NCBI RefSeq assembly: GCF_010727325.1
Contig: NZ_AP022565.1
Coordinates: forward strand, 2,356,001-2,420,000
Origin: Mycolicibacterium alvei
GTDB taxonomy: Bacteria > Actinomycetota > Actinomycetes > Mycobacteriales > Mycobacteriaceae
DNA length: 64,000 bases
Reading direction: 5' to 3'
Shown: positions 1 to 20,015 of the stretch, piece after piece
How the letters are laid out: every line of letters begins with the position of its first letter
How positions within the stretch are numbered: position 1 is the stretch's first letter
Translations under genes and position numbers: made by a program
The notes under the pieces: generated by a model
Database searches by the model: none
Told to the model about the DNA's origin: nothing
What the model saw: only the letters and a program-made list of their open reading frames with translations

Positions 1-498
1 GCAGCCACAGCAGCACTGGCCGTCCTGGCTGCCGCCCCGGCCCACGCCGGGCCGCTGCCCGGTTTCTGTGTGCCGCCCAACGTCGTCGACGACGTCTGCA
101 CGACGCGGTTGACGTCGGCGACGGCCGACGTCATCGACGGGACGATCACCGGGAAGCCGGTCGGCAGCGGGACTGCGATCACCCTGGCGGGGCCAGCGGA
201 TGCGTACCTGAAATCGGCGGGATTCGGTGACGCACCGCCGGACCCGGTTCAGGAATGGGACGCCTCGATTGACAGGGTCAGTGACCTCGACACCTCCCCC
301 TCCGACCCCAATTGGTACGGCAACGCCAAGGCCAGGGTGTTCCTGCCCAGGACCCTCAACGAACTGGCCACCAAGTTTCCCTCTGGCAGTCTGCTCGTCG
401 GATTCGTGGCTGACGACTCCCGGCCGGACGCGTTCCGCTTGGTGTCGATTCAGCCGACCGCTACACCCGATCCTGTGCCAGCCCGGCCAGGTGCTTGA
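1..498 (+). CDS. Secreted protein, 5' end cut by the window edge
   Basis: Frame 1 is open from the first base to the TGA at 496-498. The first codons read as the end of an Ala/Leu-rich signal peptide with a plausible signal peptidase site after Ala-His-Ala. The exported part is therefore about 150 residues and starts near Gly-Pro-Leu-Pro-Gly. It has a Cys pair early (FC...VC, about 10 residues apart) that could form a disulfide, and the C-terminus is Pro/Ala-rich. A GTG at 70 could be mistaken for a start, but it lies after the signal sequence, so the real start is upstream of the window. The last 38 bases overlap the convergent SRPBCC gene. I do not recognise the family and assign no function. 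Confidence 0.7.
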   Translation, partial: AATAALAVLAAAPAHAGPLPGFCVPPNVVDDVCTTRLTSATADVIDGTITGKPVGSGTAITLAGPADAYLKSAGFGDAPPDPVQEWDASIDRVSDLDTSPSDPNWYGNAKARVFLPRTLNELATKFPSGSLLVGFVADDSRPDAFRLVSIQPTATPDPVPARPGA

Positions 499-940
499 GC
501 GAGTTGTCCAGGTGCCGCCGGTCGAACGGCGGGAACTCGATGTGTTCGCGTAGGGCCTGCGGCACCGCCGACCAGTCATAGCTCAGGGTGACGTTCGTCC
601 GGTCGTCGCCGAGCGGCTCGAGGTCGTAGCGCCAGATCCAGCCGCCGAACTCGAGGTTGGCGTCGTCAGCGCCCTGGCCCGGCAGCCAGGCGATCGCGTG
701 CGGAGGCTCGAAAACCTCGACCCGGTTGGCCATCTCGTAGTGCATGCCGCCGTAGTTGTCGTGGTACATCGCCATCCGGAAGATCTGGCCGGTTTCGGTG
801 AGCGGCTTGCCGTCGAGCGACTCCCGGACCCACCCGGTGCCGTCGATCGCCTGATGGGTGCTCGGGTCGGCCAGCACCGCGAACACGGTTTCGGCCGATG
901 CATCGATGGTGCAAGCGGTGCTGATGGTTTCGTCAGTCAT
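461..940 (-). CDS. SRPBCC (START/Aha1-like) ligand-binding fold protein
   Basis: The 159-residue protein begins with the usual SRPBCC opening: a first beta strand, then the 'IDASAETVFAVLADPSTH' segment that starts the helix-grip fold. It ends with a long C-terminal helix ('LDNSLKHLAGLA'). The middle is rich in Trp and aromatics (WIWRYDLEP), as expected for strands lining a hydrophobic pocket. Length fits polyketide cyclase/dehydrase or Aha1-type single-domain members. The family binds hydrophobic ligands or acts as a cyclase. No catalytic residue here lets me choose, so the ligand is unknown. It is convergent with, and overlaps by 38 bases, the secreted protein gene to its left. Confidence 0.8.
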   Translation of the reverse strand: MTDETISTACTIDASAETVFAVLADPSTHQAIDGTGWVRESLDGKPLTETGQIFRMAMYHDNYGGMHYEMANRVEVFEPPHAIAWLPGQGADDANLEFGGWIWRYDLEPLGDDRTNVTLSYDWSAVPQALREHIEFPPFDRRHLDNSLKHLAGLAQDRV

Positions 941-995
941 ACCCGTACCGACCGTGGGCGATCTCGAAACTCATCGAGCCTGCAACCCGCGTGGA

Positions 996-1382
996 CTAGG
1001 GCAGCTGACCCGCCAACTCACGCGCATAGTCGACTTCGTCGCTGACATCGAGAACCGTGTCGGGGTGGGTCGCCGGAACCAACGTCGAGTGACAGAACCC
1101 GTCGCCCTGGACGGTGACCTGAATAAACCCAACCTGCCGCACGTCCTTCGCGAGCAGGAAAAGCAGGCCCAGCAGACAGAACAAGGAACCCACAATCGCC
1201 AGAACGACCCTACTGTTCGAGAGGTGCTCTTCGGAGGTGGACATGTCCGTGACCGTCCACTCGGTTCCACGGATCGGAAATTGGCCGATCGGCGTCGATA
1301 TCCAGTACTGCGAAACTGCAACATCACCGATCGTCGTCAACCACTCGTCAGAACTATCGGCGTCGACGAAGGGATCCCCCAT
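996..1382 (-). CDS. Small single-pass membrane protein, conserved mycobacterial type
   Basis: The predicted protein has 128 residues. A soluble N-terminal part of about 58 residues contains 'SSDEWLTTIGDVAVSQ'. One strong membrane segment follows at about 59-79 (VVLAIVGSLFCLLGLLFLLA). A C-terminal part has beta character ('GFIQVTVQGDGFCHSTLVPA') and ends in 'VDYARELAGQLP'. It resembles a family of short mycobacterial membrane proteins of unknown role that I remember only by general pattern. The start at 1382 gives the complete conserved-looking N-terminus; an internal ATG near residue 47 is possible but would delete it. It is divergent from the gene at 1475, with a 92-base shared upstream region. 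Function unknown. Confidence 0.7.
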   Translation of the reverse strand: MGDPFVDADSSDEWLTTIGDVAVSQYWISTPIGQFPIRGTEWTVTDMSTSEEHLSNSRVVLAIVGSLFCLLGLLFLLAKDVRQVGFIQVTVQGDGFCHSTLVPATHPDTVLDVSDEVDYARELAGQLP

Positions 1383-1474
1383 GAAGGGCGATTAAAGCAC
1401 GTGGCCGCGACTTGCAGTCGCAGGTTGACGATCAATCCAAGACGCGCGCGGCCACCCGTCCCTACAGTTCTGAC

Positions 1475-1876
1475 ATGCAGACATTGCTGTTCACGCTTGG
1501 TCTGGTCCTGTTTCTGATCGGCCTGCTCACCGGGTTCGCCGTGCCGACGCTGAAAAACCCGCGCATGGCGCTGTCGAGCCACCTCGAAGCGATTCTCAAC
1601 GGCATGTTCCTCGTGCTGCTCGGGTTGCTCTGGCCATACATCCACTTGCCTCACGCCTGGGCAGTTGTGGCAGTCGTACTCATCGTGTACTCCGCCTACG
1701 CGAACTGGCTGGCGACGCTGCTCGCCGCGGCATGGGGTGCCGGCCGCAAACTCGCGCCGATCGCAGCGGCCGACCACCAGGCCTCAACGACAAAGGAACA
1801 GATCGTCAGCTTTCTGTTGGTATCCCTCTCGGCGTCGATCGTCGTGGGCGTCGGCATCGTCATCTTCGGGCTCTGA
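1475..1876 (+). CDS. Hydroxylaminobenzene mutase-like integral membrane protein
   Basis: The 133-residue protein has four hydrophobic segments (residues about 2-20, 40-58, 62-84 and 110-132). The conserved block 'LKNPRMALSSHLEAILNGMFL' spans the first loop; I associate it with the HabA/HabB family, which rearranges hydroxylaminobenzene to 2-aminophenol. The start is placed at the ATG just before the first membrane helix. An in-frame opening upstream to 1412 would add a charged stretch with no membrane character and is unlikely. Several proteins of this family carry vague names in databases, so substrate assignment is by family only. The gene is followed by a hairpin shared with groEL1. Confidence 0.7.
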   Translation: MQTLLFTLGLVLFLIGLLTGFAVPTLKNPRMALSSHLEAILNGMFLVLLGLLWPYIHLPHAWAVVAVVLIVYSAYANWLATLLAAAWGAGRKLAPIAAADHQASTTKEQIVSFLLVSLSASIVVGVGIVIFGL

Positions 1877-1912
1877 CGACGCTCCGTCGACACAGTGCCG
1901 CGTAAATGACGA

Positions 1913-1946
1913 AAACACCCCCGGCCCAACCGGACCGAGGGTGTTT
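1913..1946. terminator. Bidirectional hairpin between the mutase-like gene and groEL1
   Basis: AAACACCC (1913-1920) pairs with GGGTGTTT (1939-1946) around a GC-rich loop that holds a smaller CCGG/CCGG stem. It lies between two convergent stop codons. For transcription from groEL1 the 3' side is followed by 'gtcatttacg' with only a short T-run, so it is a weak intrinsic or I-shaped terminator. Confidence 0.65.
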
Positions 1947-1958
1947 CGCGAAACGAAC

Positions 1959-3652
<1,694 letters not shown>

Positions 3653-3663
3653 CGCACGAGTAC

Positions 3664-3963
3664 TTACTTGTTGACGACAGCCAGCACGTCGCGCGCCGAC
3701 AGGATCAGGTACTCCTCGCCGTTGTACTTGATCTCGGTGCCGCCGTACTTGCTGTAGATCACGGTGTCGCCCTCAGCAACGTCCAGGGGGATCCGCTTCT
3801 CGCCATCCTCATCCCAGCGGCCGGGGCCAACTGCGACGACGGTGCCTTCCTGCGGCTTTTCCTTGGCGGTGTCGGGGATGACCAGACCGGAAGCGGTCGT
3901 GGTCTCGGCCGCGTTGGCCTGAACGAGGATCTTGTCCTCGAGTGGCTTGATGTTGACTGCCAC
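3664..3963 (-). CDS. groES: 10-kDa co-chaperonin GroES
   Basis: From the GTG at 3963 the protein is 99 residues: '(M)[19 protein letters not shown]' through the mobile loop '[19 protein letters not shown]' to '...[14 protein letters not shown]'. This matches mycobacterial GroES almost residue for residue. The start is decided by the GGAGGG Shine-Dalgarno eight bases upstream and by family length; a longer in-frame opening to 4095 would add an Arg/Pro-rich tail inside the leader and is rejected. GroES caps the GroEL folding chamber. The gene heads the groES-groEL1 operon behind a 132-base leader and a CIRCE-controlled promoter, so heat-shock repression by HrcA is expected. Confidence 0.97.
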
Positions 3964-4095
3964 GATGGAAGCCCTCCACTTGTCGGGGTGTGGATCCGGG
4001 GGGATCCCCAGATGCCGGTTACCAGGTGTTCGGCAAGCGTCCGTGCCCTCGCTCCGTCGTCGCGGGTGCCGGCGCTGGGGTAGGCCGCATGCCAC

Positions 4096-4127
4096 CTAGC
4101 ACTCTATACATGCGAGTGCTAGCACTC
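4096..4127. promoter_or_regulatory. CIRCE operator (HrcA site) plus an extra half-site
   Basis: CTAGCACTC (4096-4104), nine bases, then GAGTGCTAG (4114-4122) is a perfect CIRCE inverted repeat. A further CTAGCACTC half-site at 4119-4127 overlaps its right arm and pairs with the GAGTGCTAG, making a staggered second operator. The binding protein in mycobacteria is HrcA. Confidence 0.92.
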
Positions 4128-4129
4128 AA
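4103..4129 (-). promoter_or_regulatory. groES promoter
   Basis: On the minus strand TTGAGT (4124-4129) and TATAGA (4103-4108) are separated by 15 bases. Both boxes are embedded in the CIRCE repeats, so repressor binding would block RNA polymerase directly. Confidence 0.6.
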
Positions 4130-4200
4130 GGGGGGCCTGTGCTTTAGGGGCCGTACCAGGCGGCCCTACGAGTAGCCCGACGGTCGCAACCACAAACTGG

Positions 4201-4214
4201 AGTAGTCGACTACT
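4201..4214. promoter_or_regulatory. 14-bp perfect palindrome upstream of the ATPase cassette
   Basis: AGTAGTCGACTACT is a perfect palindrome 69 bases before the first cassette start. A second small dyad (GCGCG-TAT-CGCGC) follows at about 4223-4235. They look like an operator region for the cassette; the regulator is unknown and no regulator gene is in the cassette. Confidence 0.45.
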
Positions 4215-4282
4215 GATGTTCAGCGCGTATCGCGCCAGGATGCTGAGTCCATTGCCCGAACTTCAGCATGGGGAGCGGAACA

Positions 4283-4909
4283 ATGGTCGACAGCGCCTAC
4301 TCATGGAAACCGCAAGCCGCGGATGATGCCCCGCAGCGCCATCGGCAGGATGTCGGGCCGGCGCCGTCCCGGCCCCGGCAGCGCCAGGCCGGGAGCGCTC
4401 TGGTCGAAGGCCAGGTCCGAAATGTCGAGAAACGCATGCCGGTCAACGGGCGTGCGATCGTGCACTTCCGGGTCGAGCAATTCGATCACGAGGGCGGCCG
4501 GCGCCAACGCATCCCCGTACAGTTCGTCTCGTTCGGCGGCGCCTTCGGCAAGGATCTCGATGTGCACGAGGGTGACCGTGTGCGCGTGCACGGGCAATGG
4601 GACACCGGCACCATCATCGCCACTCAGGTGGAGAATCTGACCACCCGGGAATCAACCAAATCGCGGAACTGGTCGCCCGGCAAAACCCTGGCGCTGGCGG
4701 CCGGTGTCCTTCTAGTGCCCGCCGTCATATTCGGAGCGATCGGCTTGGGGCTGGCCCATTGGGGCACGTCGAATTTCGACCGGGACCGGCAACAAACGGA
4801 AAACACCTTCCGCCAGGAACGCGATCAGATGCAACGTCAATGGTGTGAGGACGCCGCCGACGCCGGGGCCCATTTCAGTCAATGCGATGACCTTACTGGC
4901 ACGCCGTGA
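4283..4909 (+). CDS. Membrane-anchored OB-like domain protein, first gene of the HerA cassette
   Basis: The 208-residue protein has four visible parts. A charged, Pro/Arg/Gln-rich N-terminus spans about 1-38. A beta-rich domain spans about 40-125, with alternating strands around 'VEGQVRNVEKRMPVNGRAIVHFRVEQ', 'RIPVQFVSFGGAF' and 'EGDRVRVHGQWDTGTI'; it looks like an OB fold. One membrane helix follows at about 134-155 ('LALAAGVLLVPAVIFGAIGLGL'). The tail is short, charged and coiled, with two cysteines (WCEDAADAGAHFSQC). The start is taken at 4283 because GGGGAG lies seven bases before it; an ATG at 4268 is in frame but has no such site. Its stop overlaps the next start by four bases (GTGA), so the two are translationally coupled. 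The OB assignment is by eye. Confidence 0.7.
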   Translation: MVDSAYSWKPQAADDAPQRHRQDVGPAPSRPRQRQAGSALVEGQVRNVEKRMPVNGRAIVHFRVEQFDHEGGRRQRIPVQFVSFGGAFGKDLDVHEGDRVRVHGQWDTGTIIATQVENLTTRESTKSRNWSPGKTLALAAGVLLVPAVIFGAIGLGLAHWGTSNFDRDRQQTENTFRQERDQMQRQWCEDAADAGAHFSQCDDLTGTP

Positions 4910-7900
4910 GCAGCGACATCGTCAGCACCGCCAATCTCGACTACATCCAGCGGGTGGGGTTCGAGCCACCTCCGGTGGATCCGACGCGAGTCACCCGCGC
5001 CCCGACCGCACAGCGCAGCATGCTGCGGATCACCGGTATCGGACGGTTGGGCAAGCAGGAGAAGACGTCGCACCTCGCCGACGACACGTTGGGCGTCGAC
5101 GACCTGCTGGCCGGGTTGCACATGTCCCGTGTGCCGCTGGCATTCCGGATCGGACATGACCGCGGCACCGCGCGCGTCGAGTTCGGCACGTGGCTGCCCG
5201 GCATCTCCAACTCCTCAGCGCTCACCCGCCACACCAAGGTGCTGGATTCGGCTCTGCGCTCGCTGTACCCGGCTATCGACATCACCCCGGTTTCGCCGCA
5301 AACCGGGCAGTGGCAACGCGGCGGCCTGGTCATGGGGATACCTACGTTCAAACTGCCTACCGCACGAGAAGGGGTCCGCCAGGTAGATCGCCTCTTGCGC
5401 GCGCTGGCCGGTCGTTCCTGGTCGGCGCTCGTGTTGGCGCAACCCGTGGACGACACCGCCATCCGCGATCTACGGATCAGGCTGATCAACGAGATGCGGA
5501 CGGTGCAGACCGATACCGCGGACTTCGGAGTACCCAGCCCACTGGCCGAGAGTTACCTGCAAATTCTTGCTGGGCAATTGGATTCGCTGAACTCCGGGCA
5601 GGGATCGGGAACCTGGCGCACCGCGGTCTACCTACTCAGCGACCAGGACGGCTACGACGAGGCGGCCAGCCTGTGGCGTGGCATCTACTTCGGAGCCGAT
5701 TCCGCCCCTGAACCGCTGCGGGTTTTCAGCCGGGTCGACGTCCCGGCGCTGGCAGACGGTTGGGTACTGCCGGACCCGGTGTCCGCGGAATCGGCGCCCG
5801 GCTATTACCGGCATCCGTTCGAGCACCAAACCTTGCTCACCTCGGGCCAACTGGCCACCTACCTTCAGTTGCCGCAGGTGGAGACACCCGGATTCGCGAT
5901 CAGCGACATCGCCGATTTCGATGTCGTCACCCTGCCCGCCGGTGCCGCGGACATTGCGCTGGGCAACGTCGTCGAGCGCCGGACTGTGAGTATGCATCCC
6001 TACGCGATCGACCCTGATCGCCTGACCCGCCACGGATTCATCTCCGGGGTCACCGGTTCGGGAAAGACCAATACCGTATTCCAGATCCTCGGCGAAGTGT
6101 CATCCCGTCGCATTCCATTCCTGGTGATCGAACCCGCAAAGACGGAATATCGGGCGCTGCTCAACGACACTGAAATCGGTTCTGCTATAAGGGTATACAC
6201 CCTCGGCGACGAGATGGTGTCACCGTACCGATTGAATCCCTTCGAAGTACCTGAGGGCATTTCGGTCTCGGTACACCTGGACATGTTGCGGGCGGTCTTC
6301 AACGCGAGCTTCGGTATGTGGACCCCGTTGCCACAGGTGCTGGAAACCTGTCTACACGAGGTCTATACCGACCGCGGCTGGGACATCACCACCAATACCA
6401 ACCACCGGCTGCGGTGTTGTGTAGATCGTTCCCTCGCGTTCCCCACACTGACCGAGCTGGTCCGCAAGGTCGAAGTCACAGTCCCCGAACTCGGCTACGA
6501 CGACAAGGTCGCCAACGACATCAGTGCAGCGCTGCGCACTCGCTTGAACAGCCTACGAACCGGCGGCAAGGGCCGGATGCTGGATACCCGCCAAGGCCTG
6601 GATTTCGCCGAATTGTTGAGCCGGCCCACCATCGTCGAACTGGAAGACATGGGTGACGACGACGACAAGGCCTTCCTGATGGGACTGGTGATGATCCGGC
6701 TGATCGAGCACCGCCGCGTTCAGGGCGACTTCGACAAGCTACGTCACCTGATGGTTATCGAGGAGGCACACCGACTGCTGGCCAACACCGCCCCCAAACA
6801 AGGCGGACCGGACGCCGAAGGCGATATGAAAGGCAAGGCAGTCGAGACATTTTCGAATCTACTCTCCGAGATAAGGGCCTACGGGCAAGGTGTGTTGGTG
6901 GTCGATCAGGTGCCCACCAAACTGGCGCCTGACGTGGTCAAGAACACCAACCTGAAACTGGCACACCGCCTCGTTGCCGGCGATGACCGCGGGGTGATCG
7001 CCGACGCGATGGCCATGACCAAGGCTCAGGAGTCGGCCCTGGCGACCATGCCGGTCGGCTGGGCCGTCGCTTTCAACGACGGCGAGGATGCGTCACTGCT
7101 GCTGCAGATCCACCGCCGCAAGAGCGGATCGGGCACCTGGCCCACCGATGGGGACGTACGCGTCCGGATGACCGGGACGCTCCAGACCACCGTTTGCGCC
7201 CAGCTGGTCGCCTGCCCGCGAGCCCTTAAGGTTGTCGAAACCCCTTCGGTGAAAAGAGCATTCAGCCGCGTGGTGCTGTCCGCAATCTACAACCCGGGTG
7301 GCCTCGCGCGGACCTGGCCGGACGTGGTCGCTCTGATCGAGCCCATGCGGCCGCCCGACATCGACCGAAACACTTTTCTGCGCTGCGTGATTCACCGCGG
7401 AGCCGAACAGTGGTCGGACGCCGCAGGCGCACGCGGCAGTTGGCCCTTCGACGAGACGAGCCGGATAGCCACCCTCATCGGGCAGCTGATCAGTGCCGCG
7501 CCGGACGGCCACGCCGACGCGTCGACCCTCGACGAGCTGCGCGGAGCGCTGCGGGCGCTACGCGCAGAGGGCTTCGGTCCCTTCCCCGCCTGCAGCAAGA
7601 TCTGGGCCAGCGACGCCGCCGATGCTTGTGCGTGTGCGGTCCCAGTGGCCGAACTGGTGGCGTCAGGGCAGTTCAATGAGCAATGGACGGATGCGGGCTA
7701 CGACGACCGCGCCGGCAATCGACGCCAAGCCACCTGGGATGTGTGCACAGCAGCCGCCTTTGAACTGATCGAGGTCAACCCGTTCGATGCCAGGGACGCA
7801 GACCTGCCACGCATCAACCGTAATGCGGACCGGCTCGGCCTGTGCTTCGCCCAACAGATGCTCGGCGCCCAGAAATGGACGCACCCCGTCGCCTCGCGGC

Positions 7901-7977
7901 GGGCACTCATTGCCCTGTTCGCCGAGCAGCAGCTGCAATCCGACCCACAACCAGAAGGAGCGCACGACCATGCCTGA
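4906..7977 (+). CDS. Large HerA/DUF87-type ATPase
   Basis: The 1023-residue protein has a central P-loop ATPase. Walker A is G381-VTGSGK-T388, followed by 'VFQILGEVSSRRIPFLVIEPAKTEY', the characteristic IEPAK block of HerA-like DUF87 proteins. Walker B is 'LMVIEEAHRLL' with the acidic pair at about 619-620. 'EIRAYGQGVLVVDQVPTKLAPDVVKNTN' and 'LAHRLVAGDDR' complete the hexameric motor core. About 370 residues precede the core and about 300 follow it; the C-terminal part has a Cys cluster (CSKIWASDAADACAC). HerA motors pump DNA or drive nucleases and also occur in antiphage systems, but no NurA-type nuclease, Sir2 or other known partner gene is adjacent. It is coupled to the OB-like membrane gene and overlaps the repeat-protein gene by eight bases. 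Confidence 0.88.
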   Translation: MSSDIVSTANLDYIQRVGFEPPPVDPTRVTRAPTAQRSMLRITGIGRLGKQEKTSHLADDTLGVDDLLAGLHMSRVPLAFRIGHDRGTARVEFGTWLPGISNSSALTRHTKVLDSALRSLYPAIDITPVSPQTGQWQRGGLVMGIPTFKLPTAREGVRQVDRLLRALAGRSWSALVLAQPVDDTAIRDLRIRLINEMRTVQTDTADFGVPSPLAESYLQILAGQLDSLNSGQGSGTWRTAVYLLSDQDGYDEAASLWRGIYFGADSAPEPLRVFSRVDVPALADGWVLPDPVSAESAPGYYRHPFEHQTLLTSGQLATYLQLPQVETPGFAISDIADFDVVTLPAGAADIALGNVVERRTVSMHPYAIDPDRLTRHGFISGVTGSGKTNTVFQILGEVSSRRIPFLVIEPAKTEYRALLNDTEIGSAIRVYTLGDEMVSPYRLNPFEVPEGISVSVHLDMLRAVFNASFGMWTPLPQVLETCLHEVYTDRGWDITTNTNHRLRCCVDRSLAFPTLTELVRKVEVTVPELGYDDKVANDISAALRTRLNSLRTGGKGRMLDTRQGLDFAELLSRPTIVELEDMGDDDDKAFLMGLVMIRLIEHRRVQGDFDKLRHLMVIEEAHRLLANTAPKQGGPDAEGDMKGKAVETFSNLLSEIRAYGQGVLVVDQVPTKLAPDVVKNTNLKLAHRLVAGDDRGVIADAMAMTKAQESALATMPVGWAVAFNDGEDASLLLQIHRRKSGSGTWPTDGDVRVRMTGTLQTTVCAQLVACPRALKVVETPSVKRAFSRVVLSAIYNPGGLARTWPDVVALIEPMRPPDIDRNTFLRCVIHRGAEQWSDAAGARGSWPFDETSRIATLIGQLISAAPDGHADASTLDELRGALRALRAEGFGPFPACSKIWASDAADACACAVPVAELVASGQFNEQWTDAGYDDRAGNRRQATWDVCTAAAFELIEVNPFDARDADLPRINRNADRLGLCFAQQMLGAQKWTHPVASRRALIALFAEQQLQSDPQPEGAHDHA

Positions 7978-8530
7978 GGTCACACACCGGAGAACCCCGA
8001 CAGATAACCGTTCGGCGACCCAACCGCGCGACTCGCACGACGACCCGTCACGCAGCTACCGGCACGCCGAGGACCGCGCCGGAGGCGATCAGAAACGGAC
8101 CTGGCAGGAGAAAGGCAAGGACGGCGCCGTCCACGACAAGTCATCGGAGAGCAAGCACAAAGACGGCACCACAACGGTCCGCACCAGCGACCAGTGGAAG
8201 GACCGCACCGGCGACCACACCAAGACTTCAGAGAGCGTCAAGTCCCACAACAAGTACGACGGCTCGACGTCGACCAAGACCACCGACGTCACCAGGACCG
8301 ACAAGAAGGACGGCAGCAGCTTCGAAAACAAGAAGGAGACGAACACGACGAGGCATCACGACGGCTCGTCGTCCACGTCGAAGTCCAATACCGACACCAC
8401 GATCAAACGGGACGGTTCCACAACGATCAAGACATCGACTACCACCGAAAACCGAGATTCGACGGGGAAGGTCACGGACTCGTCGACCAAGAATTCCAGC
8501 AGCACCAGCAGTAACCAATGGGGCATCTGA
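7970..8530 (+). CDS. Hydrophilic Ser/Thr/Lys/Asp-rich repeat protein of the HerA cassette
   Basis: The 186-residue protein is extremely hydrophilic, with no membrane segment and no cysteine. From about residue 60 the unit '(K/Y/H/R)DG(S/T)(S/T)' recurs five times: KDGTTT, YDGSTST, KDGSSF, HDGSSST, RDGSTT. Each is followed by a Thr/Lys-rich stretch, at spacings of roughly 20-40 residues. The pattern suggests a fibrous or beta-solenoid-like repeat, or a disordered polyanion/polycation tract. The ATG at 7970 has AGAAGGAG nine bases upstream and lies inside the end of the ATPase gene, so it belongs to the same operon. A longer in-frame opening from 7787 runs inside the ATPase gene and is rejected. 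I do not recognise the family. Confidence 0.75.
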   Translation: MPEVTHRRTPTDNRSATQPRDSHDDPSRSYRHAEDRAGGDQKRTWQEKGKDGAVHDKSSESKHKDGTTTVRTSDQWKDRTGDHTKTSESVKSHNKYDGSTSTKTTDVTRTDKKDGSSFENKKETNTTRHHDGSSSTSKSNTDTTIKRDGSTTIKTSTTTENRDSTGKVTDSSTKNSSSTSSNQWGI

Positions 8531-8580
8531 GCGCTTTGACGAACAGGCGAGAAAGACGGACCTACCCGCCTCGGGCGATG

Positions 8581-9021
8581 TCATGCGCCGTATTTGCTCA
8601 GAGCGATGTTCAGATGCTCGGACACGTCGCCGACCATTTCGACATCGACTCGGCGCTCGGTGAAGTACCAGCCGTCTTCGCCGCGGGCGAACGAGTCGAA
8701 ATACCGCCCGACCACGATGGGCTGCAGCACCACGGTGTCGGTCTTCTGCACCACACAGAAGGTCGAGCGGGCGGTTGCCCGGTCACCATCGACGTCGACG
8801 ATCGGGTTGAGCACCAGATGCCGGGTGCGTGGGGTATTGCCGTGCTCGGGGAATCGACGCGTCGTCGACGCGAACAACTGGGCGATGGCCGGCGCACCCG
8901 CCACACCCATGAACGAGCCGCGACCGAGCAGCTCCCCGACCCCGTCGAAGTCACCGGCGTCGATCAGCTCGCCGTAGCGGTACAGCAGCTCGGTGACCTC
9001 GAGCTTGTCCGCGACGCTCAT
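8581..9021 (-). CDS. SnoaL/NTF2-like protein
   Basis: The 146-residue protein begins '[32 protein letters not shown]', the usual helix-rich opening of the SnoaL-like/NTF2 cone fold. It then has '[27 protein letters not shown]' and '[30 protein letters not shown]' strands. Members include isomerases, dehydratases and aromatic ring-hydroxylating dioxygenase beta-like proteins, so substrate is open. The start at 9021 overlaps the tsaD stop by four bases (ATGA) and is chosen over a longer opening to 9144 that runs inside tsaD. It is the last gene of the alr-tsaD run, whose other members I recognise by function. Confidence 0.82.
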
Positions 9022-10040
9022 GCCACCTGCCCCTGCACCACCGGCAGACCCGGATCGCTGGCCACATCCAGCGGCGACGGCTCCGCACCGGCGGCGATCA
9101 GGTGCGCGGCGAACGAGGCGATCATCGCGCCGTTGTCGGTGCACAACCGTGGCCGCGGCACCCGCAACGTCAGGCCCGCAGCCGCGCAGCGTTCCTCGGC
9201 GAGTTCGCGAAGGCGTGAGTTGGCCGCCACCCCGCCCGCGATCAGCAGGGTGGACACCCCCAGATCGGTGGCCGCGCGGACCGCCTTGGCGGTCAGCACA
9301 TCGGCGACAGCCTCCTGGAAGCCGGCCGCCACATCCGCCTGCGAAGCCTCCGGGTGACCTTCTACATACCGGGCCACCGCGGTCTTGAGCCCCGAGAAGC
9401 TGAACACGTACGGGTCGTCACGCGGCCCCGTCATCCCCCGCGGAAAGACGATGGCGTCGCGGTCACCGCTGCGGGCCAGCTCGTCGAGTACCCGTCCGCC
9501 CGGATAACCCAGTCCGAGTAGCCGGGCCACCTTGTCGTAAGCCTCCCCGGCCGCGTCGTCGACGGTGCTGCCCAACTCGACGATCGGCTCGCCCAATGAC
9601 CGCACATGCAGCAGGTGGGTGTGCCCACCCGAGACGAGCAGGCCGACGCTCTCGGGCAGCGGGCCGTGGTCGTAGACGTCGGCGGCCAAGTGCCCGCCCA
9701 GGTGGTTGACGCCGTAGAAGGGGACGTTCCAGCCTGCCGCGTACGCCTTGGCGGCGGCCACCCCGACCAGCAGAGCCCCGGCCAGTCCGGGACCGATGGT
9801 CGCGGCGACGACGTCGGGGCGGTCGATTCCTGCGGCATCCAGGGCGCGACGCATGGTCGGGCCCAGGGCCTCGAGGTGGGCCCGCGACGCGATCTCGGGG
9901 ACGACGCCGCCGTAGCGCGCGTGCTCGTCGACGCTGGAGGCGACCTCATCGGCAAGAAGCTTTACCGTTCCGTCTTCCGCGAGGTCGGCGATACCGACTC
10001 CGGTTTCGTCACAAGAACTTTCGATGGCCAGAATGATCAC
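9018..10040 (-). CDS. tsaD: tRNA N6-adenosine threonylcarbamoyltransferase TsaD
   Basis: The 340-residue protein begins '[20 protein letters not shown]', carries the metal-binding HxxxH of the family ([12 protein letters not shown]) and '[12 protein letters not shown]', and ends with the ASKHA-fold glycine motifs ('[16 protein letters not shown]'). TsaD transfers the threonylcarbamoyl group to A37 of ANN-decoding tRNAs in the t6A pathway, working with TsaB and TsaE, which are encoded just upstream here. Its start overlaps the rimI stop (ATGA) and its stop overlaps the SnoaL-like start (ATGA). The gene was formerly called gcp. Confidence 0.96.
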
Positions 10041-10498
10041 GTCGGGCCCCCTTGGGGAAGGCGTTGCATGGTGTAGGCGTCAGCCCCACTGACGCGGTAG
10101 TACCGCTTGCGCAGGCCGATGTTGACGAATCCGGCGCTCTCATACAGCGCGATGGCCGGTTCGTTGTCAGTGCGGACTTCCAGGAAAACCGTTCCGCCCG
10201 AGGCGAAGTCGAGCAGGTCGTCGAGCAGCCGACGTCCGATCCCCTGCCCCTGGAAGTCGGGGTCGACACCGATGGTGTGGATCTCGTATTCATACGGGCG
10301 CATTCGACCCAACCGGGAGATCCCGGCGTAGCCGACCAACACCCCGTCGCTGCGGGCCGCGATATAGCGATTGTGTTTGGCGTCGAGTTCGGCCAGGAAT
10401 GCCGTCGCCGGCCAAGGATCGTCACCGACGAACAGCTTGGCTTCCAGCTCAGCGCACCGCGTGGCATCGGCACGGCCAAGGGCGTCGAACACCGTCAT
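10037..10498 (-). CDS. rimI: Ribosomal protein S18-alanine N-acetyltransferase RimI (GNAT)
   Basis: The 153-residue GNAT protein starts '[23 protein letters not shown]'. It contains the acetyl-CoA pyrophosphate-binding loop '[16 protein letters not shown]' and the C-terminal '[18 protein letters not shown]' typical of RimI. RimI acetylates protein N-termini, classically S18. The ATG at 10498 overlaps the tsaB stop (ATGA), which fixes it against an opening extending to 10930 inside tsaB. In mycobacteria rimI lies between tsaB and tsaD, as here. Confidence 0.93.
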
Positions 10499-11133
10499 TT
10501 GCGCACCGCCGCAGAAGGTTTGGCGTCGGGCCGGCGCAGATACAGCGGCACCAGAGGCTGCGGGTCGCCCCAATCCGCGACGGCGTGCACCAGGCCGGCA
10601 GGGGTCGGGTACACGAGGTCGAGCCGGGGCAGCGCGAACAGCGCCGCGTGCTCGGGGGAACCGGCCACCGCGGCGACCGAGCTGGCCAGTACGGCCGCCA
10701 CATCGGCGGGTGCGTTGACGGACGGGCCGTCGACCCGGACTCCGTCCCGGTAGTGCGCCCAGTACACCTCGCGCCGCCGGGCATCGGTGACCACCAATAC
10801 GTCGCCGTCGGTATGGATTCCGATGCCGTCCAAGCTGCATACTCCGTGGACCGGAATGCCCAACGCATGGCCGAACGCCGCAGCACTCGCCATGCCCACC
10901 CGCAGGCCGGTGAACGGGCCGGGTCCACACCCGATGACGATCGCGTCGAGATCTGCGACGGTGATTCCGGCATCGGCCACGGCGCCGAGCACGTTCGGGG
11001 TGAGCTGTTCGGCGTGGGCACGGGCATCGACGGTCACCCGTTCGGCGAGGGTCTGCGCCGTGCCGTCCTCGGCACGACGGACCACTCCGGCGCTGACCGC
11101 CGGGGTCGCGGTGTCGATGGTCAAGATGTTCAT
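10495..11133 (-). CDS. tsaB: t6A biosynthesis protein TsaB
   Basis: The 212-residue protein begins 'MNILTIDTATPAVSAGVV', has the ASKHA-type 'GCGPGPFTGLRVGMASAAAFGHALGIPVHGV' block typical of TsaB, and ends Lys-rich. It dimerises with TsaD as a scaffold of the threonylcarbamoyl transfer complex and lacks the TsaD metal site. The ATG at 11133 overlaps the tsaE stop (ATGA) and is preferred over an ATG 12 bases upstream. Confidence 0.94.
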   Translation of the reverse strand: MNILTIDTATPAVSAGVVRRAEDGTAQTLAERVTVDARAHAEQLTPNVLGAVADAGITVADLDAIVIGCGPGPFTGLRVGMASAAAFGHALGIPVHGVCSLDGIGIHTDGDVLVVTDARRREVYWAHYRDGVRVDGPSVNAPADVAAVLASSVAAVAGSPEHAALFALPRLDLVYPTPAGLVHAVADWGDPQPLVPLYLRRPDAKPSAAVRK

Positions 11134-11597
11134 GGGGCGCTCCACTGCCAGATCACCGTGCGCGTCTCGGTGTCGGTGTCGCGCTCGATACGGATGTCCA
11201 GGTGATGATCGGAGAGCCGTTCGGCCAGGCCCTCACCCCACTCGACCACCACGACGGCGTCGTCGAGATCGGTGTCGAGGTCGAGCGCATCGAGCTCCCC
11301 CAGTAGGTCGACACCGGGATGGTCGAGCAGTCGGTACATGTCCACGTGCACCATCGCCGGCCGGCCTGCCTGCCGGGCGCGATGCACCCGGGCCAGCACG
11401 TACGTCGGTGAGACCACCGGGCCGTCCACATCCATGGCCGCCGCGATCCCCTTGGCCATCACGGTCTTGCCTGCCCCCAGCGGACCCGACAACACCACCA
11501 CGTCACCGGCTTTCAGCCCGGCACCCAGCGTCGCGCCCAGGGCGATGGTGTCCTCGGTGGTGGCGAGTTCGGCCGTACCGGCGCTGCGCTCAGCCAC
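11130..11597 (-). CDS. tsaE: t6A biosynthesis ATPase TsaE
   Basis: The 155-residue protein has Walker A 'GPLGAGKTVMAKG', the 'DGPVVSPTYVL' switch and 'MVHVDMYRL' followed by 'VVVEWGEGL', which are the signature blocks of TsaE/YjeE. TsaE binds at the TsaB-TsaD interface and its ATPase activity resets the complex. The GTG start overlaps the hydrolase stop by eight bases. Confidence 0.95.
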   Translation of the reverse strand: MAERSAGTAELATTEDTIALGATLGAGLKAGDVVVLSGPLGAGKTVMAKGIAAAMDVDGPVVSPTYVLARVHRARQAGRPAMVHVDMYRLLDHPGVDLLGELDALDLDTDLDDAVVVVEWGEGLAERLSDHHLDIRIERDTDTETRTVIWQWSAP

Positions 11598-12678
11598 GGA
11601 ACCGGACCCGGTCGCGGACCCGGCGGGTCAAGGTGACCAGTTTGGACGGGGTGGCCCGCTCCACCAGACGGACCAGTGCGTCGTCGATCACCACGGGCTC
11701 CTCAAGCTGGACCAGATGACCGGCTCCCCCGACGATCACCAGTTCGGAGCGGGGTAGCTGTGCGGCCATGGCCTTTGAGTATTCCATTGGGGTGAGCAGG
11801 TCCCGATCACCACAGGCGATCAGTGTCGGCACCTTGGCCAGCACCTTCAGGGCACCGGCCTCGTCGTGGACCTCGAGGGCGTGCAGGAATTCGACCAGGG
11901 TGGTGATCGACGTGCCGTGCATCATCCGTTGGGAGAACTCGACCACGCTCGGACTGACCGACTCGTCGCCGTAGGACGCCGCACGCAGGATCGGCCCGAT
12001 CACCGACCGGGCCGCGCCGCGGCCGCGGTGCACCACGCCGGGGGCATAGCGGGCCAAAAACTGCACCGCCTCCAGCGCCGGGTTGCGCAGAATCTCCCCC
12101 AGCGGTGAGCGTGCCACGCCCTCGACCGCCGAGGAGATCACCGCGGCGCCGACGATCTGTTTCCGGTAGCGATGCGGGAATTGCCGGGCATGCGAAAGAA
12201 CGGTCATGCCGCCCATCGAATGGCCGACCAGCACCGCGGGGCCGCGTGGAACCGTCACCGCCAGAACCGCTTCCAGATCACGACCGAGTTGTTCGACGGT
12301 GTAGGTGTCCGGCGACGCGGTCCCCGACTGGCCGTGGCCGCGCTGGTCGTAGAACACCATGCGCACCTGCGGGCCCCACTGTTCGGCCAACCGGATGCGC
12401 TGAAAGTAGAAGGCGCCCATACGCAAACAGAATCCGTGGGCGAAAACCACCGTCAGCGGTGCGTCGTTGGGGCCGACTTCACGTACCGCCAGCGGTACCC
12501 CGTCCTCGGTCGTCACCACCGAACTACGGTCGGCGTCCAGGCGTTCGAAATCCTCACCCAGGTAGGGATCCTCACCGGCGCTGCGCCGGGTCAGCGACCG
12601 CGCCACCGATCTGCCCGCCACCGAGCTCACCGCGGTGAGCCCGGCGGCACCGGCCAGCCACTGAGCATTGCGACTCAA
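11590..12678 (-). CDS. Alpha/beta-hydrolase
   Basis: The 362-residue protein has a hydrophobic N-terminus (about residues 7-25, possible membrane anchor or signal). An alpha/beta-hydrolase domain follows: oxyanion region '[12 protein letters not shown]', '[11 protein letters not shown]', nucleophile elbow 'GHSMGG', acid in '[13 protein letters not shown]' and catalytic His in '[13 protein letters not shown]'. All triad positions are present, so it should be active; the substrate is unknown (ester or lipid likely). The TTG start at 12678 overlaps the alr stop by four bases (TTGA). The position between alr and tsaE is shared with M. tuberculosis as I remember it. Confidence 0.9.
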
Positions 12679-13844
12679 CGCTCGCGACCTGCCTGCAGGT
12701 AGGTGCGGGTGATCCGGCCGCGTGGGCTGGTGGCCACCTCGTAGTTGATGGTGCCGAGCAGTTCGGCCCAGTCCTGGGCGGTCTGTTCACCGTGGGTGCC
12801 GGGGCCGAACAGGATGGCGTCGTCACCTTCGGCGACGTCGGTGACGTCCGGGCCTAGGTCGACAACGAACTGGTCCATGCAGATCCGCCCGACGGCCGGG
12901 CAGCGCCTGCCGTTGATCAGCACCTCGATCCGCCCGCTCAACGAGCGGAAGATACCGTCGGCGTACCCCACCGGCAGCAACGCCAGCCTGGTGTCCCGGT
13001 CGGCGATCCACCGGTGACCGTAGGACACTCCATCACCCGTATGCACCGAACGTACCAGCGCCACAGGGCATTTCAATGTCATGGCAGGACGCAGACCCAT
13101 ATCGCCGCGCTCCGGGATCGGGCTCAGCCCGTAGACCGCGATTCCGGGCCGCACCATGTCGAACGCCAGATCCGGCCGGGTCATCGCCGCCGGCGAGTTC
13201 GCGATGTGGGCCACCTCGAACACCACGCCCCGCTCGGCGGCCTGCTCCCGCATCGCGGTCAGGCGCTTGCCCTGCAGCTCGTTGAACGGATTGTCGGGCT
13301 CGTCGCCGTGCACCAGGTGACTCATGATGCCGCGCACCCGGATCGCACCGTCGGCCTGGGCCCGGCCCAGCGCTGCGACCATCGCGGGGAAATCTGCCGG
13401 GCTGACACCATTGCGGCTCAGACCGGTGTCCACCTTCACCGTGACGCTCGCGGTGCGGCCGGTCCGGCGGACGGCGTCGAGCACGTCGTCGAGCTGGCGC
13501 ACCGAAGACACCGCGATCTGCACATCGTTTTCCAGCGCGGGCGCGAAGTCGGTGCCCGGCGAGTGCAGCCAGCACAGCACCGGGGCGGTGATCCCGGCGG
13601 CCCGCAGCTCAACTGCCTCGGCGATGGTCACCACCCCGAGTTCGGCGGCTCCGGCGGCCAGTGCGGCCCGGCCCACCTCGACGGCGCCGTGCCCGTACCC
13701 GTCGGCCTTGACCACCGCCATCACCTGGGCGTTGCCGGCATGTTCACCCAGCAGGCGGACGTTGTGGTCGATCGCGCCGAGGTCCACCATCGCCCGCGGC
13801 GATGCGTGTGGGGTCAACGATGTCTCGATTTCGGTCGTCTGCAT
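12675..13844 (-). CDS. alr: Alanine racemase
   Basis: The 389-residue protein contains the PLP-lysine motif '[15 protein letters not shown]', the second-base region '[29 protein letters not shown]' and '[14 protein letters not shown]'. Length matches actinobacterial Alr. It converts L- to D-alanine for peptidoglycan, cytosolic. It is the first gene of a seven-gene minus-strand run whose junctions mostly overlap by 4-8 bases. Upstream are 89 bases separating it from gadB, including a 9-bp tandem repeat at the gadB stop. Confidence 0.96.
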
Positions 13845-13913
13845 GTCATATCACCGCCGACCATTGTCCCAGAGGCAGGTATCGGGGCAGATCAGCGGAC
13901 CTGCTGCGGGCCG

Positions 13914-13940
13914 ATCTAGTGCATCTAGTGCATCTAGTGC
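13914..13940. repeat. 9-bp tandem repeat, three copies, across the gadB stop
   Basis: ATCTAGTGC occurs three times in a row (13914-13922, 13923-13931, 13932-13940). On the minus strand each unit supplies an in-frame TAG, so gadB ends His-stop, Met-His-stop, Met-His-stop. The unit is a whole number of codons. Confidence 0.95.
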
Positions 13941-15328
13941 GCAAACGGCTGCAGGTCGTTGAAGGCTCCGCTCGGCTTGAGTTTGTCGAGCCGCCCGAGC
14001 ACCGTGACCAAGTCGTCCTTGAGTGCGCGGGCCAGGTCGGCCGAGAATCCCTCCCGCACGACAACCCGCAGCACGACGACGTCGGTGGCGTCGTCGGGCA
14101 TCGTGTAGGCCGGTACCTGCCAGCCGAAGGAGCGCAATCCTTCGGACACGTCGAACTCGGTGTATCGGGGTTTGCCCTTGAGCCGGAAGCTGACCACGGG
14201 GATCGCCGACCCGTCACTGATCAGCTCGAAGTGCTCGCTGTCGCGGAGCTCGTCTCCCAGCCAGCGCGCCGTCTGCGACAGACACTGCATCACCTGGGTG
14301 TAGCCGGCCCGGCCCAGCCGCAGGAAGTTGTAGTACTGGCCCACCACCTGGTTGCCGGGCCGCGAGAAGTTCAGGGTGAAGGTCGGCATGTCCCCGCCGA
14401 GGTAGTTGACCCGGAACACCAGGTCCTCGGGCAGGTACTCCTTGCTGCGCCACACCACGAAGCCGATGCCCGGGTAGGTCAGCCCGTACTTGTGGCCGCT
14501 GACGTTGATCGACACCACGCGCGGCAGGCGGAAGTCCCACTCCAGGTCGGGATGCAGGAACGGGACGACGAATCCGCCACTGGCGGCGTCGACGTGCACG
14601 GGAACGTCAGGACCCTTGACCCCATTTTCCCCCGATGCGAGCTGATCCAGGGCCGCGCAGATCTCCGCGATCGGCTCCAACTCCCCGGTGTAGGTGGTGC
14701 CCAGGATCGCGACGACGCCGATGGTGTCCTCGTCGACCGCGTCGAGCACCTGCTCGGGGGTGATGACGTAGCGCCCTTCTTCCATCGGCAGGTAGCGCGG
14801 TTCGACGTCGAAGTACCGGCAGAACTTCTCCCACACCACCTGGACGTTGGAGCCCATCACCAGGTTGGGGGTGCGCCCCTTCCAGTTGTTGCCGACCTTC
14901 TCGCGCCACCGCCACTTCATGGCCAGGCCGCCCAGCATGACGGCCTCGCTGGAGCCGATCGTGGAGACGCCGCATGCGGCCGATGAGTCCTCGTCGCTCA
15001 GATCCTCGGCGTGGAAGAGGTCGGCAACCATGCTCACGCAGCGCGCTTCGATCGCCGCGGTGGCCGGGTACTCGTCCTTGTCGATCATGTTCTTGTCGAA
15101 CGTCTCGGCCATCAGCTTCTCGGCCTCGGGGTCCATCCACGTCGTGACGAACGTCGCCAGGTTCAACCGTGAGCTGCCGTCGAGCATCAGCTCGTCGTGG
15201 ATGAAGCGGTAGGCCGCATCGGGTTCCATCGCCTCATCGGGTAGGCGCAGCGACGGAACCGGGGCCATCGCCAGTCTGCCGGTGTAGGCCGGAGAGATAT
15301 GCGGGGTACGAGGGTGCTTGTGCGGCAT
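13934..15328 (-). CDS. gadB: Glutamate decarboxylase
   Basis: The 464-residue group II PLP decarboxylase has 'HVDAASGGFVVPFL' (PLP-aspartate) and 'INVSGHKYGLTYPGIG' with the PLP lysine, plus the typical GAD N-terminus ('PDEAMEPDAAYRFIHDEL'). It converts glutamate to GABA and CO2, consuming a proton, so it is linked to acid tolerance and the GABA shunt. No antiporter gene is adjacent. The gene starts 15 bases after the nnrD... side: its ATG at 15328 lies 15 bases downstream of the nnrD stop on the same strand, so the two are probably cotranscribed. The stop is followed by two further in-frame stops in a tandem repeat. Confidence 0.95.
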   Translation of the reverse strand: MPHKHPRTPHISPAYTGRLAMAPVPSLRLPDEAMEPDAAYRFIHDELMLDGSSRLNLATFVTTWMDPEAEKLMAETFDKNMIDKDEYPATAAIEARCVSMVADLFHAEDLSDEDSSAACGVSTIGSSEAVMLGGLAMKWRWREKVGNNWKGRTPNLVMGSNVQVVWEKFCRYFDVEPRYLPMEEGRYVITPEQVLDAVDEDTIGVVAILGTTYTGELEPIAEICAALDQLASGENGVKGPDVPVHVDAASGGFVVPFLHPDLEWDFRLPRVVSINVSGHKYGLTYPGIGFVVWRSKEYLPEDLVFRVNYLGGDMPTFTLNFSRPGNQVVGQYYNFLRLGRAGYTQVMQCLSQTARWLGDELRDSEHFELISDGSAIPVVSFRLKGKPRYTEFDVSEGLRSFGWQVPAYTMPDDATDVVVLRVVVREGFSADLARALKDDLVTVLGRLDKLKPSGAFNDLQPFAH

Positions 15329-15343
15329 GGAGATCCTTTTCTT

Positions 15344-16765: not shown

Positions 16766-16812
16766 CAGCTCCCGCTCCGCTCGATCTGTCGTCGACTTTG
16801 CCGCGCGCCAAC

Positions 16813-16841
16813 AGGTTACGTGTGTTTGCTCGGCACGGTCA
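16813..16841 (-). promoter_or_regulatory. Probable nnrD promoter
   Basis: On the minus strand TGACCG (16836-16841) and TAACCT (16813-16818) are 17 bases apart, giving a leader of about 40 bases. It lies just after the hairpin that closes the glmS unit. Confidence 0.5.
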
Positions 16842-16868
16842 GAGAATCGCCGGGGGCGGCGAACCATC

Positions 16869-16931
16869 CGCCGAACGTGAGGATATGTGCGAACTTTCGT
16901 GCGAATCTCGCACACAAGCTCACGTTCGGCG
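16869..16931. terminator. Long hairpin between glmS and nnrD
   Basis: CGCCGAACGTGAG (16869-16881) pairs perfectly with CTCACGTTCGGCG (16919-16931). Inside, TGTGCGA (16886-16892) pairs with TCGCACA (16908-16914) across a symmetric 4x4 internal loop, and the apical part holds TTCG/CGAA. It starts nine bases after the glmS stop. There is no T-run, so it is an I-shaped terminator or a palindromic dispersed element. Confidence 0.7.
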
Positions 16932-16939
16932 CGAGAAAC

Positions 16940-18817: not shown

Positions 18818-18920
18818 AGGTTCCCAGGGTAGTGCAGCCGGGGCGCTGGCCCGATTCTGCGCGATGGCATTTGACGCAGATCACCGCGAAAGCACCGGGT
18901 GCAGATTCGGTGCCCTGCGC

Positions 18921-18926
18921 TACGGT
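18921..18926 (+). promoter_or_regulatory. -10 box for a leaderless start at 18933
   Basis: TACGGT ends six bases before the GTG start, matching the mycobacterial TANNNT box spacing that makes transcription begin at the start codon. Confidence 0.55.
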
Positions 18927-18932
18927 CAACGC

Positions 18933-19784: not shown

Positions 19785-19791
19785 CGGTGCG

Positions 19792-19938: not shown

Positions 19939-20015
19939 TTTCGACTCTCCCCTGTCTGTTGATCGGCCTCGAACAGTAGCGTGCGCCTTCACGCCGGCGA
20001 CTCCTCCATCCTCAA

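What the first reader, a model, noticed from the sequence alone, without database searches (positions are those of the whole stretch)
4283..8530. Three-gene HerA-ATPase cassette inserted between groES and the tsaD cluster: candidate undescribed system
Seen: three plus-strand genes with 4- and 8-base overlaps encode a membrane-anchored OB-like protein, a 1023-residue HerA/DUF87 ATPase with intact Walker motifs, and a Ser/Thr/Lys/Asp repeat protein. The flanks are minus-strand housekeeping genes that I recall as neighbours in M. tuberculosis. Known: HerA motors power DNA end-processing and several antiphage systems, always with a partner nuclease or effector. Inference: here the partners are a membrane OB protein and a DG(S/T) repeat protein, a combination I do not know, possibly a membrane-linked defence, DNA-transfer or surface-assembly machine.
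Basis: partly seen in the sequence, partly recalled or inferred. Interest (0 to 1): 0.78.

Follow-up and report, generated by a model that had tools for sequence, protein, structure and literature searches.

The report
Mobile ATPase cassette for moving effectors
Three coupled genes inserted beside a mycobacterial chaperone gene belong to a scattered family of membrane-linked ATPase cassettes whose wider relatives sit next to interbacterial toxin genes, so they may be a small, undescribed machine for moving effector proteins.

Summary
In detail: A (4283-4909), B (4906-7977) and C (7970-8530) overlap by 4 and 8 bases and are an insertion (about 4132-8600) between groES and a snoaL-like gene; 0 of 19 relatives' groES loci examined carry it there. 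The trio is real: a profile of A finds A in 19 of 19 loci with a full-length B, Mycobacterium to one cyanobacterium, and in 0 of 60 other DUF87/HerA loci. A models as an SSB/PriB-type OB barrel plus a membrane helix. B has intact Walker motifs; its ATPase domain matches VirB4 and DndH best, HerA next. C sits where relatives encode effectors: hydrophilic leader, interchangeable C-terminal domains. In the wider B family some next genes carry toxin domains (calpain, YwqJ deaminase, colicin DNase, ADP-ribosyltransferase, CdiA-CT), some followed by immunity-type genes; controls show none. Best reading: a membrane-anchored VirB4/HerA-type motor dedicated to polymorphic effectors, probably exporting them. 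Shown: linkage, domain swapping, toxins and immunity genes in sister branches. Inferred: transport, and the role of the toxin-less window C. I found no paper describing it.

The parts
4283..4909 (+). Gene A: 208-aa membrane protein, N-terminal disordered stretch, SSB/PriB-type OB barrel, one TM helix, short tail with a Cys pair
   Evidence: ORF; ribosome-binding-like GGGGAG upstream (by eye); profile conserved in 19 of 19 full-length-B loci
4385..4660 (+). OB-barrel domain of A (residues ~35-126)
4691..4747 (+). Transmembrane segment of A (most hydrophobic 19-residue window, residues 137-155)
   Evidence: hydropathy maximum 2.4 at residue 137; helix 132-194 in the model
4906..7977 (+). Gene B: 1023-aa HerA/VirB4-type ATPase
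4906..5922 (+). N-terminal alpha/beta region of B (residues 1-339)
   Evidence: model; Foldseek aligns TrwK/VirB4 along 858 columns but at 16 A rmsd, so its kinship is unresolved
6046..6069 (+). Walker A, GVTGSGKT (residues 381-388)
   Evidence: G381, T383, G384, G386, K387 invariant
6748..6771 (+). Walker B, LMVIEEAH (residues 615-622)
   Evidence: E619 to H622 invariant
7129..7974 (+). C-terminal helical region of B with conserved cysteines (C896, C908, C980 invariant)
7970..8530 (+). Gene C: 186-aa hydrophilic repeat protein in the family's effector slot; ends in WGI as in M. shimoidei
   Evidence: ORF; no family; 77% identical relative P0128; census of the slot; WGI
4132..8600 (.). Extent of the insertion relative to the groES-snoaL intergenic region of relatives (approximate ends)
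   Evidence: similarity to L138 stops at about 4131 and resumes at 8621; to L143 it stops at about 4137 and resumes at about 8601
4096..4122 (.). Inverted repeat upstream of groES (CIRCE-like, name recalled), just outside the insertion
   Evidence: sequence; present in L138 and L143

Best explanation
A-B-C is a mobile cassette for deploying an effector. B is a VirB4/HerA-type ring ATPase held at the membrane by A, whose cytoplasmic OB barrel may dock B, its substrate or nucleic acid. C is the substrate: a hydrophilic, probably unfolded chain without signal peptide, encoded in the same overlapping gene set, which B would move through or across the membrane. In relatives the C-terminal part of C is swapped between unrelated domains, and in sister branches of B it is often a toxin, in several cases followed by an immunity-type gene. 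Shown: conserved linkage, intact ATPase motifs, domain swapping, toxin and immunity genes in sister branches. Inferred: ring assembly, membrane docking, export, and that window C, which has no recognisable toxin domain and no immunity gene, is itself the exported effector or a surface/repeat form of it.
For: A and full-length B go together: 19 of 19 loci vs 0 of 60 other loci (A directly upstream in 18, convergent downstream in L108). The +1 slot: by one mechanical rule, 37 of 58 family loci encode a hydrophilic low-complexity N-terminus vs 1 of 17 control DUF87 loci (Fisher 1.8e-5 with a cut of 0.78 that I set after seeing the values, rank test 4.7e-5; related loci counted apart); 2 of 58 +1 proteins have a hydrophobic N-terminus. 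Domain swapping among full-length-B loci: L009 and L109 share 304 C-terminal residues at 71%, L010 and L039 share 259 at 73%, and the C-terminal 172 residues of L093b match the middle of L040b at 38%; the leaders of the first two pairs gave no match. The segment before the L009/L109 C-terminus is 54-60% identical to part of a Streptomyces protein that carries an eCIS_core domain and another C-terminus. Toxin families in the 58 +1 proteins: Peptidase_C2 5, YwqJ-deaminase 3, Colicin-DNase 3 (WHH 3), ADPrib_exo_Tox 2, LHH 1, CdiA_C 1, Col-Pyo_DNase 1, RelA_SpoT 1 (RelA_SpoT below Pfam's cut-off; overlaps between families not told). In the +2 set of 55: SUKH/SMI1_KNR4 3, MORN_2 3, DUF6406 3. Controls: none of these in 34 proteins. 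Fold: VirB4, a secretion motor, on top, tied with DndH.
Against: None of the toxin families was found in a full-length-B locus: ten C-position proteins of that branch gave no toxin hit in Pfam, nor did the ten of that branch scanned against NCBIfam, nine of them the same; the only clear match is OmpA in L012. No immunity gene was recognised there. Window C has no toxin domain. The A fold is SSB/PriB-like, which suits DNA binding as well. Five of 58 family loci are followed by MurT/GatD-type cell-wall genes, not effectors, and 21 of 58 fail the leader test. No channel or cell-wall component is encoded in the trio. The cyanobacterial A homologue shows no obvious TM segment (by eye). DndH, a defence ATPase, ties with VirB4. 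Nothing here shows export.
Confidence: 0.45

Rival explanations
1. Anti-phage or anti-plasmid defence: B senses or pumps invading DNA and C-type effectors kill or damage inside the cell.
Against: The HerA hits are partial and the mad8 hit weak (38.7 bits); PADLOC finds no defence family in A or C. SUKH and MORN_2/YwqK-type genes after the toxin in sister branches are typical of secreted polymorphic toxins (general knowledge). A membrane anchor and Pro/Gly-rich leaders are unusual for cytoplasmic defence effectors (general knowledge).
Confidence: 0.2
2. DNA transfer or uptake: a membrane-anchored ssDNA-binding OB protein and a DNA pump (compare Streptomyces TraB, crenarchaeal CedD), with C as a surface or adhesion protein.
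Against: No relaxase in the window trio; does not explain interchangeable C-terminal domains and the eCIS-shared segment; the TraB model scores 13.4 against a cut-off of 800.
Confidence: 0.2
3. B only prepares or loads C for another exporter (type VII secretion or a contractile injection system).
For: The segment shared with an eCIS_core protein; 6 of 16 genomes searched do have a contractile sheath; ESX systems are general in mycobacteria (recalled, not searched).
Against: 10 of 16 genomes with a B-family ATPase, including all four mycobacteria, have no contractile sheath (PF04984); no WXG100 or ESX gene was seen in the cassette.
Confidence: 0.1

Closest known systems
VirB4/TrwK ATPases of type IV secretion systems
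   Different: No other T4SS gene seen in the cassette; A carries an OB barrel; whole-chain superposition is poor (about 15 A)
HerA (HerA-NurA and antiphage HerA-SIR2 / HerA-DUF4297)
   Different: No NurA, SIR2 or DUF4297 found in A or C; longer N- and C-terminal regions; membrane OB partner; equivalog cut-offs missed by far (30.8 of 970, 30.4 of 800)
NF033849 ser_rich_anae_1 (NCBIfam, 'serine-rich protein')
   Same: Best NCBIfam hit of B (2e-43) over residues 216-704, profile positions 597-1105 of 1163
   Different: 148 bits against a cut-off of 650; that its other part is Ser-rich, and so like a fused C, is only suggested by its name
Polymorphic toxin systems (Zhang et al. 2012, PMC3482391; passages seen)
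   Same: Variable C-terminal toxin domain, immunity gene downstream, in the wider B family
   Different: In the passages seen, the FtsK/HerA-type ATPases tied to toxins are those of the T7SS (YueA) and the conjugation-derived T4SS; this ATPase and its A partner are not mentioned there

Membership tests
HerA/FtsK superfamily of pumping ATPases | Walker A and B motifs with conserved acidic residue, HerA central domain | tested here: met
   DUF87 32.2 vs 23.2 bits, HerA_C 27.1 vs 22; motifs, key residues invariant
HerA-NurA repair helicase or antiphage HerA systems | partner nuclease/effector gene (NurA, SIR2, DUF4297) and equivalog-level score | tested here: not met
   No such partner found in A or C by Pfam, NCBIfam, PADLOC, PHROGs; equivalog scores 30.8/970 and 30.4/800
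Type IV secretion system | VirB4 ATPase fold | tested here: met
Type IV secretion system | further T4SS components (VirB3/6/8/9/10, VirD4) in the locus | tested here: not met
   None among the trio and four neighbours scanned or in the ORF list of 1-14000 by eye; the rest of the genome was not searched for them
Type VII secretion system | EccC-type ATPase with several FtsK domains, WXG100 substrates | tested here: not met
   One ATPase domain in B; FtsK_SpoIIIE only 13.1 of 24 bits; no WXG100 hit in C
Polymorphic toxin system (window cassette) | recognisable toxin domain in C plus immunity gene | tested here: not met
   No toxin family in C; next gene is a SnoaL-like gene on the other strand
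Polymorphic toxin system (wider B family) | variable C-terminal toxins after a common type of leader, immunity genes next | tested here: met
   control. Met in part of the loci only
eCIS cargo system | contractile sheath encoded in the genome | tested here: not met
   PF04984 absent from the window's genome and from 10 of 16 genomes searched in all
Effector export by B | C leaves the cytoplasm in a B-dependent way | not testable with these tools
   needs fractionation of a wild type and a B deletion

The most novel reading that the evidence does not exclude
A minimal secretion machine not in the list of known types: one membrane OB protein and one VirB4/HerA-type ring ATPase that thread long disordered, signal-less effectors out of actinobacterial (and perhaps cyanobacterial) cells, spread by mobile elements, with an [DE]R[GP][DE]-type motif in the leader as a possible address tag (7 of 14 leaders vs 0.6 in shuffles; in a separate set of 24 leaders 6 vs 1.7; pattern chosen after looking at the first set; absent from the window's own leader).
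Probability: 0.3. Interest if true: 0.86.

Novelty: new variant of a known kind. Interest (0 to 1): 0.64.

Why it matters
Many polymorphic toxins of Actinobacteria have no known way out of the cell (general knowledge). A dedicated ATPase with a fixed membrane partner beside effector genes gives a concrete, deletable candidate motor; if it secretes, it would be a new and very small secretion type, seen here in Mycobacterium, Streptomyces, Embleya, Rhodococcus and one cyanobacterial genome bin. If it does not, the family still gives a list of toxin loci that are now annotated only as 'ATP-binding protein' and 'hypothetical protein'.

Tried and rejected
HerA-NurA repair, Dnd, Mads, SIR2- and DUF4297-HerA defence as identity: no partner family in A or C, and only partial, weak or far sub-threshold scores. 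A phage gene: one scan of viral contigs for close relatives confirmed none, and among phage records only two unannotated faecal ones share part of the ATPase. Known domains in the C proteins of full-length-B loci: none in Pfam or NCBIfam apart from OmpA in L012 and chance-level rows; PDB sequence searches with two C-termini gave nothing usable (the aspartic-protease rows for L040 are chance-level); by eye one looks like a GIY-YIG and two like restriction-endonuclease folds, unproven and not counted. The C-terminal 304 residues of the L109 C protein were found in 1 of 199 same-genus genomes, its own, so their spread could not be traced there. Transposon ends: no direct repeat of 8 bases or more between 3964-4283 and 8481-8600, one 8-base inverted match; no tRNA within 1-20000. 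Contractile injection as the exporter: sheath absent from 10 of 16 genomes. Literature: nine full-text searches of the held PMC library; in the listings and passages seen, no paper ties a DUF87/HerA ATPase outside T7SS and T4SS to polymorphic toxins. Papers: PMC3482391 twelve passages, PMC8195603 and PMC7159879 passages, PMC12839542 one passage; all others only as search listings, not opened; most subscription papers are not held, and the tool states that no bioRxiv preprints are held. My gene caller missed some repetitive C genes; I re-read those frames directly and used a mechanical rule for the census, which in L041, L093 and L109 picks a small gene before the effector, in L094 skips an 81-aa one, and in L108 and L092 finds no effector (L092 lies near a contig end). 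Duplicates: L090 repeats L008 and L176 is identical to L009; both left out of counts. L095 holds only a broken B fragment and was dropped. In L103 no +1 gene was found (contig end). L175 and L177, fetched later, are not in the census. Further searches that gave no new full-length B: 1 of 8, known; 1 of 298, own; 2 of 34, both known.
Full report
What is there. The window is part of a mycobacterial chromosome (G000 contig 1, 5.71 Mb, beside a 304-kb contig). Genes A (4283-4909), B (4906-7977) and C (7970-8530) lie on the plus strand with 4- and 8-base overlaps. The flanks are groEL and groES on the minus strand to the left and, to the right, a SnoaL-like gene (Pfam SnoaL_4 4.6e-18) and tsaD on the minus strand. 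In relatives L138 and L143 groES is followed directly by the snoaL-like gene (gaps of about 193 and 223 bases) and then tsaD; of 19 relatives' groES loci examined, none shows A, B or C in the flanks held (up to 1.5 kb a side, some cut by contig ends). Similarity to L138 ends at about 4131, just past the inverted repeat in front of groES, and resumes at 8621. The trio is therefore an insertion. In M. shimoidei (L008) the same trio has other neighbours (archease-like upstream and a CapA/PGA_cap-like gene downstream, by eye; one PGA_cap match is in the +2 set).

Conservation. Full-length homologues of B (mostly 1020-1080 aa) are in 4 of 248 same-genus genomes (E below 1e-200; the other 20 genomes with matches have only short, weak ones), 1 of 298 genomes of the order, the window's own, 3 of 394 of the class including the own, 3 of 246 in another genus of the class and 4 of 297 in that genus's family (one of them has a contig identical to the S. 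lateritius locus), and 5 plasmid records with at least 80% coverage, two of them from one Rhodococcus strain. The protein database gave 1318 relatives among 7997 scored candidates, a capped set. A profile of A built from 17 sequences and run over six-frame translations found A in all 19 full-length-B loci, four of which (L012, L109, L175, L177) were not in the profile, and in none of 60 core-only or control loci. In 18 of the 19 it lies upstream of B on the same strand, next to it; in L108 it is convergent. On plasmids, every record with an A match (4 of 4) also has B. A and C evolve fast: only 3 database hits for window A and 1 for window C.

The third position. In most full-length-B loci the gene at the C position, or the one after a small gene there, is a hydrophilic protein with a low-complexity leader. 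Its C-terminal parts fall into unrelated types. L009 and L109 share 304 residues at 71% identity and L010 and L039 share 259 at 73%, while their leaders gave no match; the C-terminal part of L093b matches the middle of L040b at 38% over 174 columns; L093b and L109b share a short leader motif. The B proteins of L009 and L109 are 51% and 41% identical to the window's. A DG-turn repeat type is, by eye, in the window, L008, L107, L041, L175, L177 and in part L038. In the window protein the [DN]G count is 6 against 1.8 in shuffles and the best lag is 17; L107 and L175 have best lags of 58/29 and 29; for L008, L041, L038 and L177 the [DN]G count alone is not beyond shuffles. A stretch of about 160 residues in L109 and L009 is 60% and 54% identical to a Streptomyces europaeiscabiei plasmid protein with an eCIS_core domain (2.5e-26) and a different C-terminus. 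In L041, L109 and L177 a gene of 173-177 aa stands between B and the effector-like gene.

The wider family and the control. Core-only relatives of B (matching mainly residues about 200-740) were fetched from unnamed actinobacterial genomes and named plasmids; not every hit was fetched, and the choice was made from hit tables before the neighbours were seen. By one rule (longest same-strand ORF starting -60 to +300 bases from the stop) 58 of 59 family loci have a +1 gene; 37 of 58 have at least 78% PGSTDENQKRA in the first 120 residues, against 1 of 17 control DUF87 loci (18 fetched: 14 places and 4; one has no +1 gene). Fisher p is 1.8e-5, but the cut was set after seeing the values and related loci are counted apart; the rank test, free of the cut, gives 4.7e-5. 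For the 17 full-length-B loci in that census the count is 13 of 17. Pfam on all 58 +1 proteins: Peptidase_C2 in 5, YwqJ-deaminase 3, Colicin-DNase and WHH 3 each, ADPrib_exo_Tox 2, LHH 1, CdiA_C 1, Col-Pyo_DNase 1, RelA_SpoT 1, OmpA 1, Collagen 1, DUF6861 1, and MurT_C and Mur_ligase_M in 5 each. Pfam on 55 proteins of the +2 set (54 by the rule plus one annotated gene of L127): SMI1_KNR4/SUKH 3, MORN_2 3, DUF6406 3, ankyrin 1, GATase_3 5 and some singles. On 34 control +1/+2 proteins: none of the toxin or immunity families (one TerD and various other families). Direct pairs seen: YwqJ-deaminase then MORN_2 (L104), calpain then DUF6406 (L117), colicin DNase then SMI1/KNR4 (L130), ADP-ribosyltransferase then an unknown gene (L128), and, as annotated, HNH then SMI1/KNR4 downstream of two dynamin genes on an E. 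coli and a Treponema plasmid, with the HNH but no named SMI1 gene in Lactococcus. No toxin family was found in a full-length-B locus, so for the window's own branch the effector reading rests on position, leader type, domain swapping and the eCIS-shared segment.

Mechanism. The most economical account is a motor with a variable payload: A anchors, B pumps, C is pumped. The +1 proteins lack an N-terminal hydrophobic stretch in 56 of 58 cases, so the Sec route is unlikely for them. A short motif, [DE]R[GP][DE], is in 7 of 14 leaders of the full-length branch (none of 2000 shuffles reached 7; mean 0.6) and, in leaders not used to find it, in 6 of 24 (shuffle mean 1.7, 0.4% of shuffles reach it); the window leader lacks the exact motif but has SRSYR as L008 does. 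This is a weak lead for an address signal. Ten of 16 genomes with a B-family ATPase lack a contractile sheath, so contractile injection is not needed.

What stays open. Transport is inferred. The SSB-like OB fold of A, nearby relaxase genes on one Rhodococcus plasmid, Ku beside L041 and a ligase-like gene beside L177 keep DNA handling alive; the likeness to DndH and antiphage HerA keeps defence alive. What the window's toxin-less C does, as filament, adhesin or an unrecognised effector, is unknown.

Novelty. Nine searches of the held literature gave no description in what I saw of their results (listed under Tried and rejected). The names given by sources to relatives of B are generic ('ATP-binding protein', 'DUF87 domain-containing protein' and the like in the 120 rows listed).

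Noticed in passing
window 4201-4214: A 14-base perfect palindrome AGTAGTCGACTACT lies between the groES inverted repeat and gene A, inside the inserted DNA (by eye); possible operator of the cassette.
   Followed up: no
L099, L102, L120, L121, L122 (+1 and +2 genes): In five loci of one actinobacterial family a core-only B relative sits directly before MurT/GatD-type cell-wall genes instead of an effector (assignment to these loci by eye).
   Followed up: no
L045, L046, L047 and L096: Distant B relatives lie downstream of two dynamin-type genes and before an HNH-type nuclease on E. coli, Lactococcus and Treponema plasmids; L096 also has GTPase-like genes upstream, by eye.
   Followed up: partly
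L104, L123, L124, L097 (gene before B): Wider-family loci have a 650-700 aa protein before B in place of A, with a membrane segment and in several a Pro/Gly/Gln-rich tail; the two scanned have no Pfam match. Possibly a second, ATPase-like subunit.
   Followed up: no
L041 13161-13892 and L177 (ligase-like ORF after C): A Ku gene and a DNA ligase-like gene (by eye) lie just downstream of two full-length cassettes.
   Followed up: no
L010 846-2336: Two tandem copies of gene A precede B in Streptomyces katrae.
   Followed up: no
L095 (G354 contig 1, about 4338103-4339029): A second, interrupted B copy in the same genome as an intact one.
   Followed up: no
B residues 764, 770, 896, 908, 980: Conserved cysteines in the C-terminal helical part of B, possibly a metal site.
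   Followed up: no
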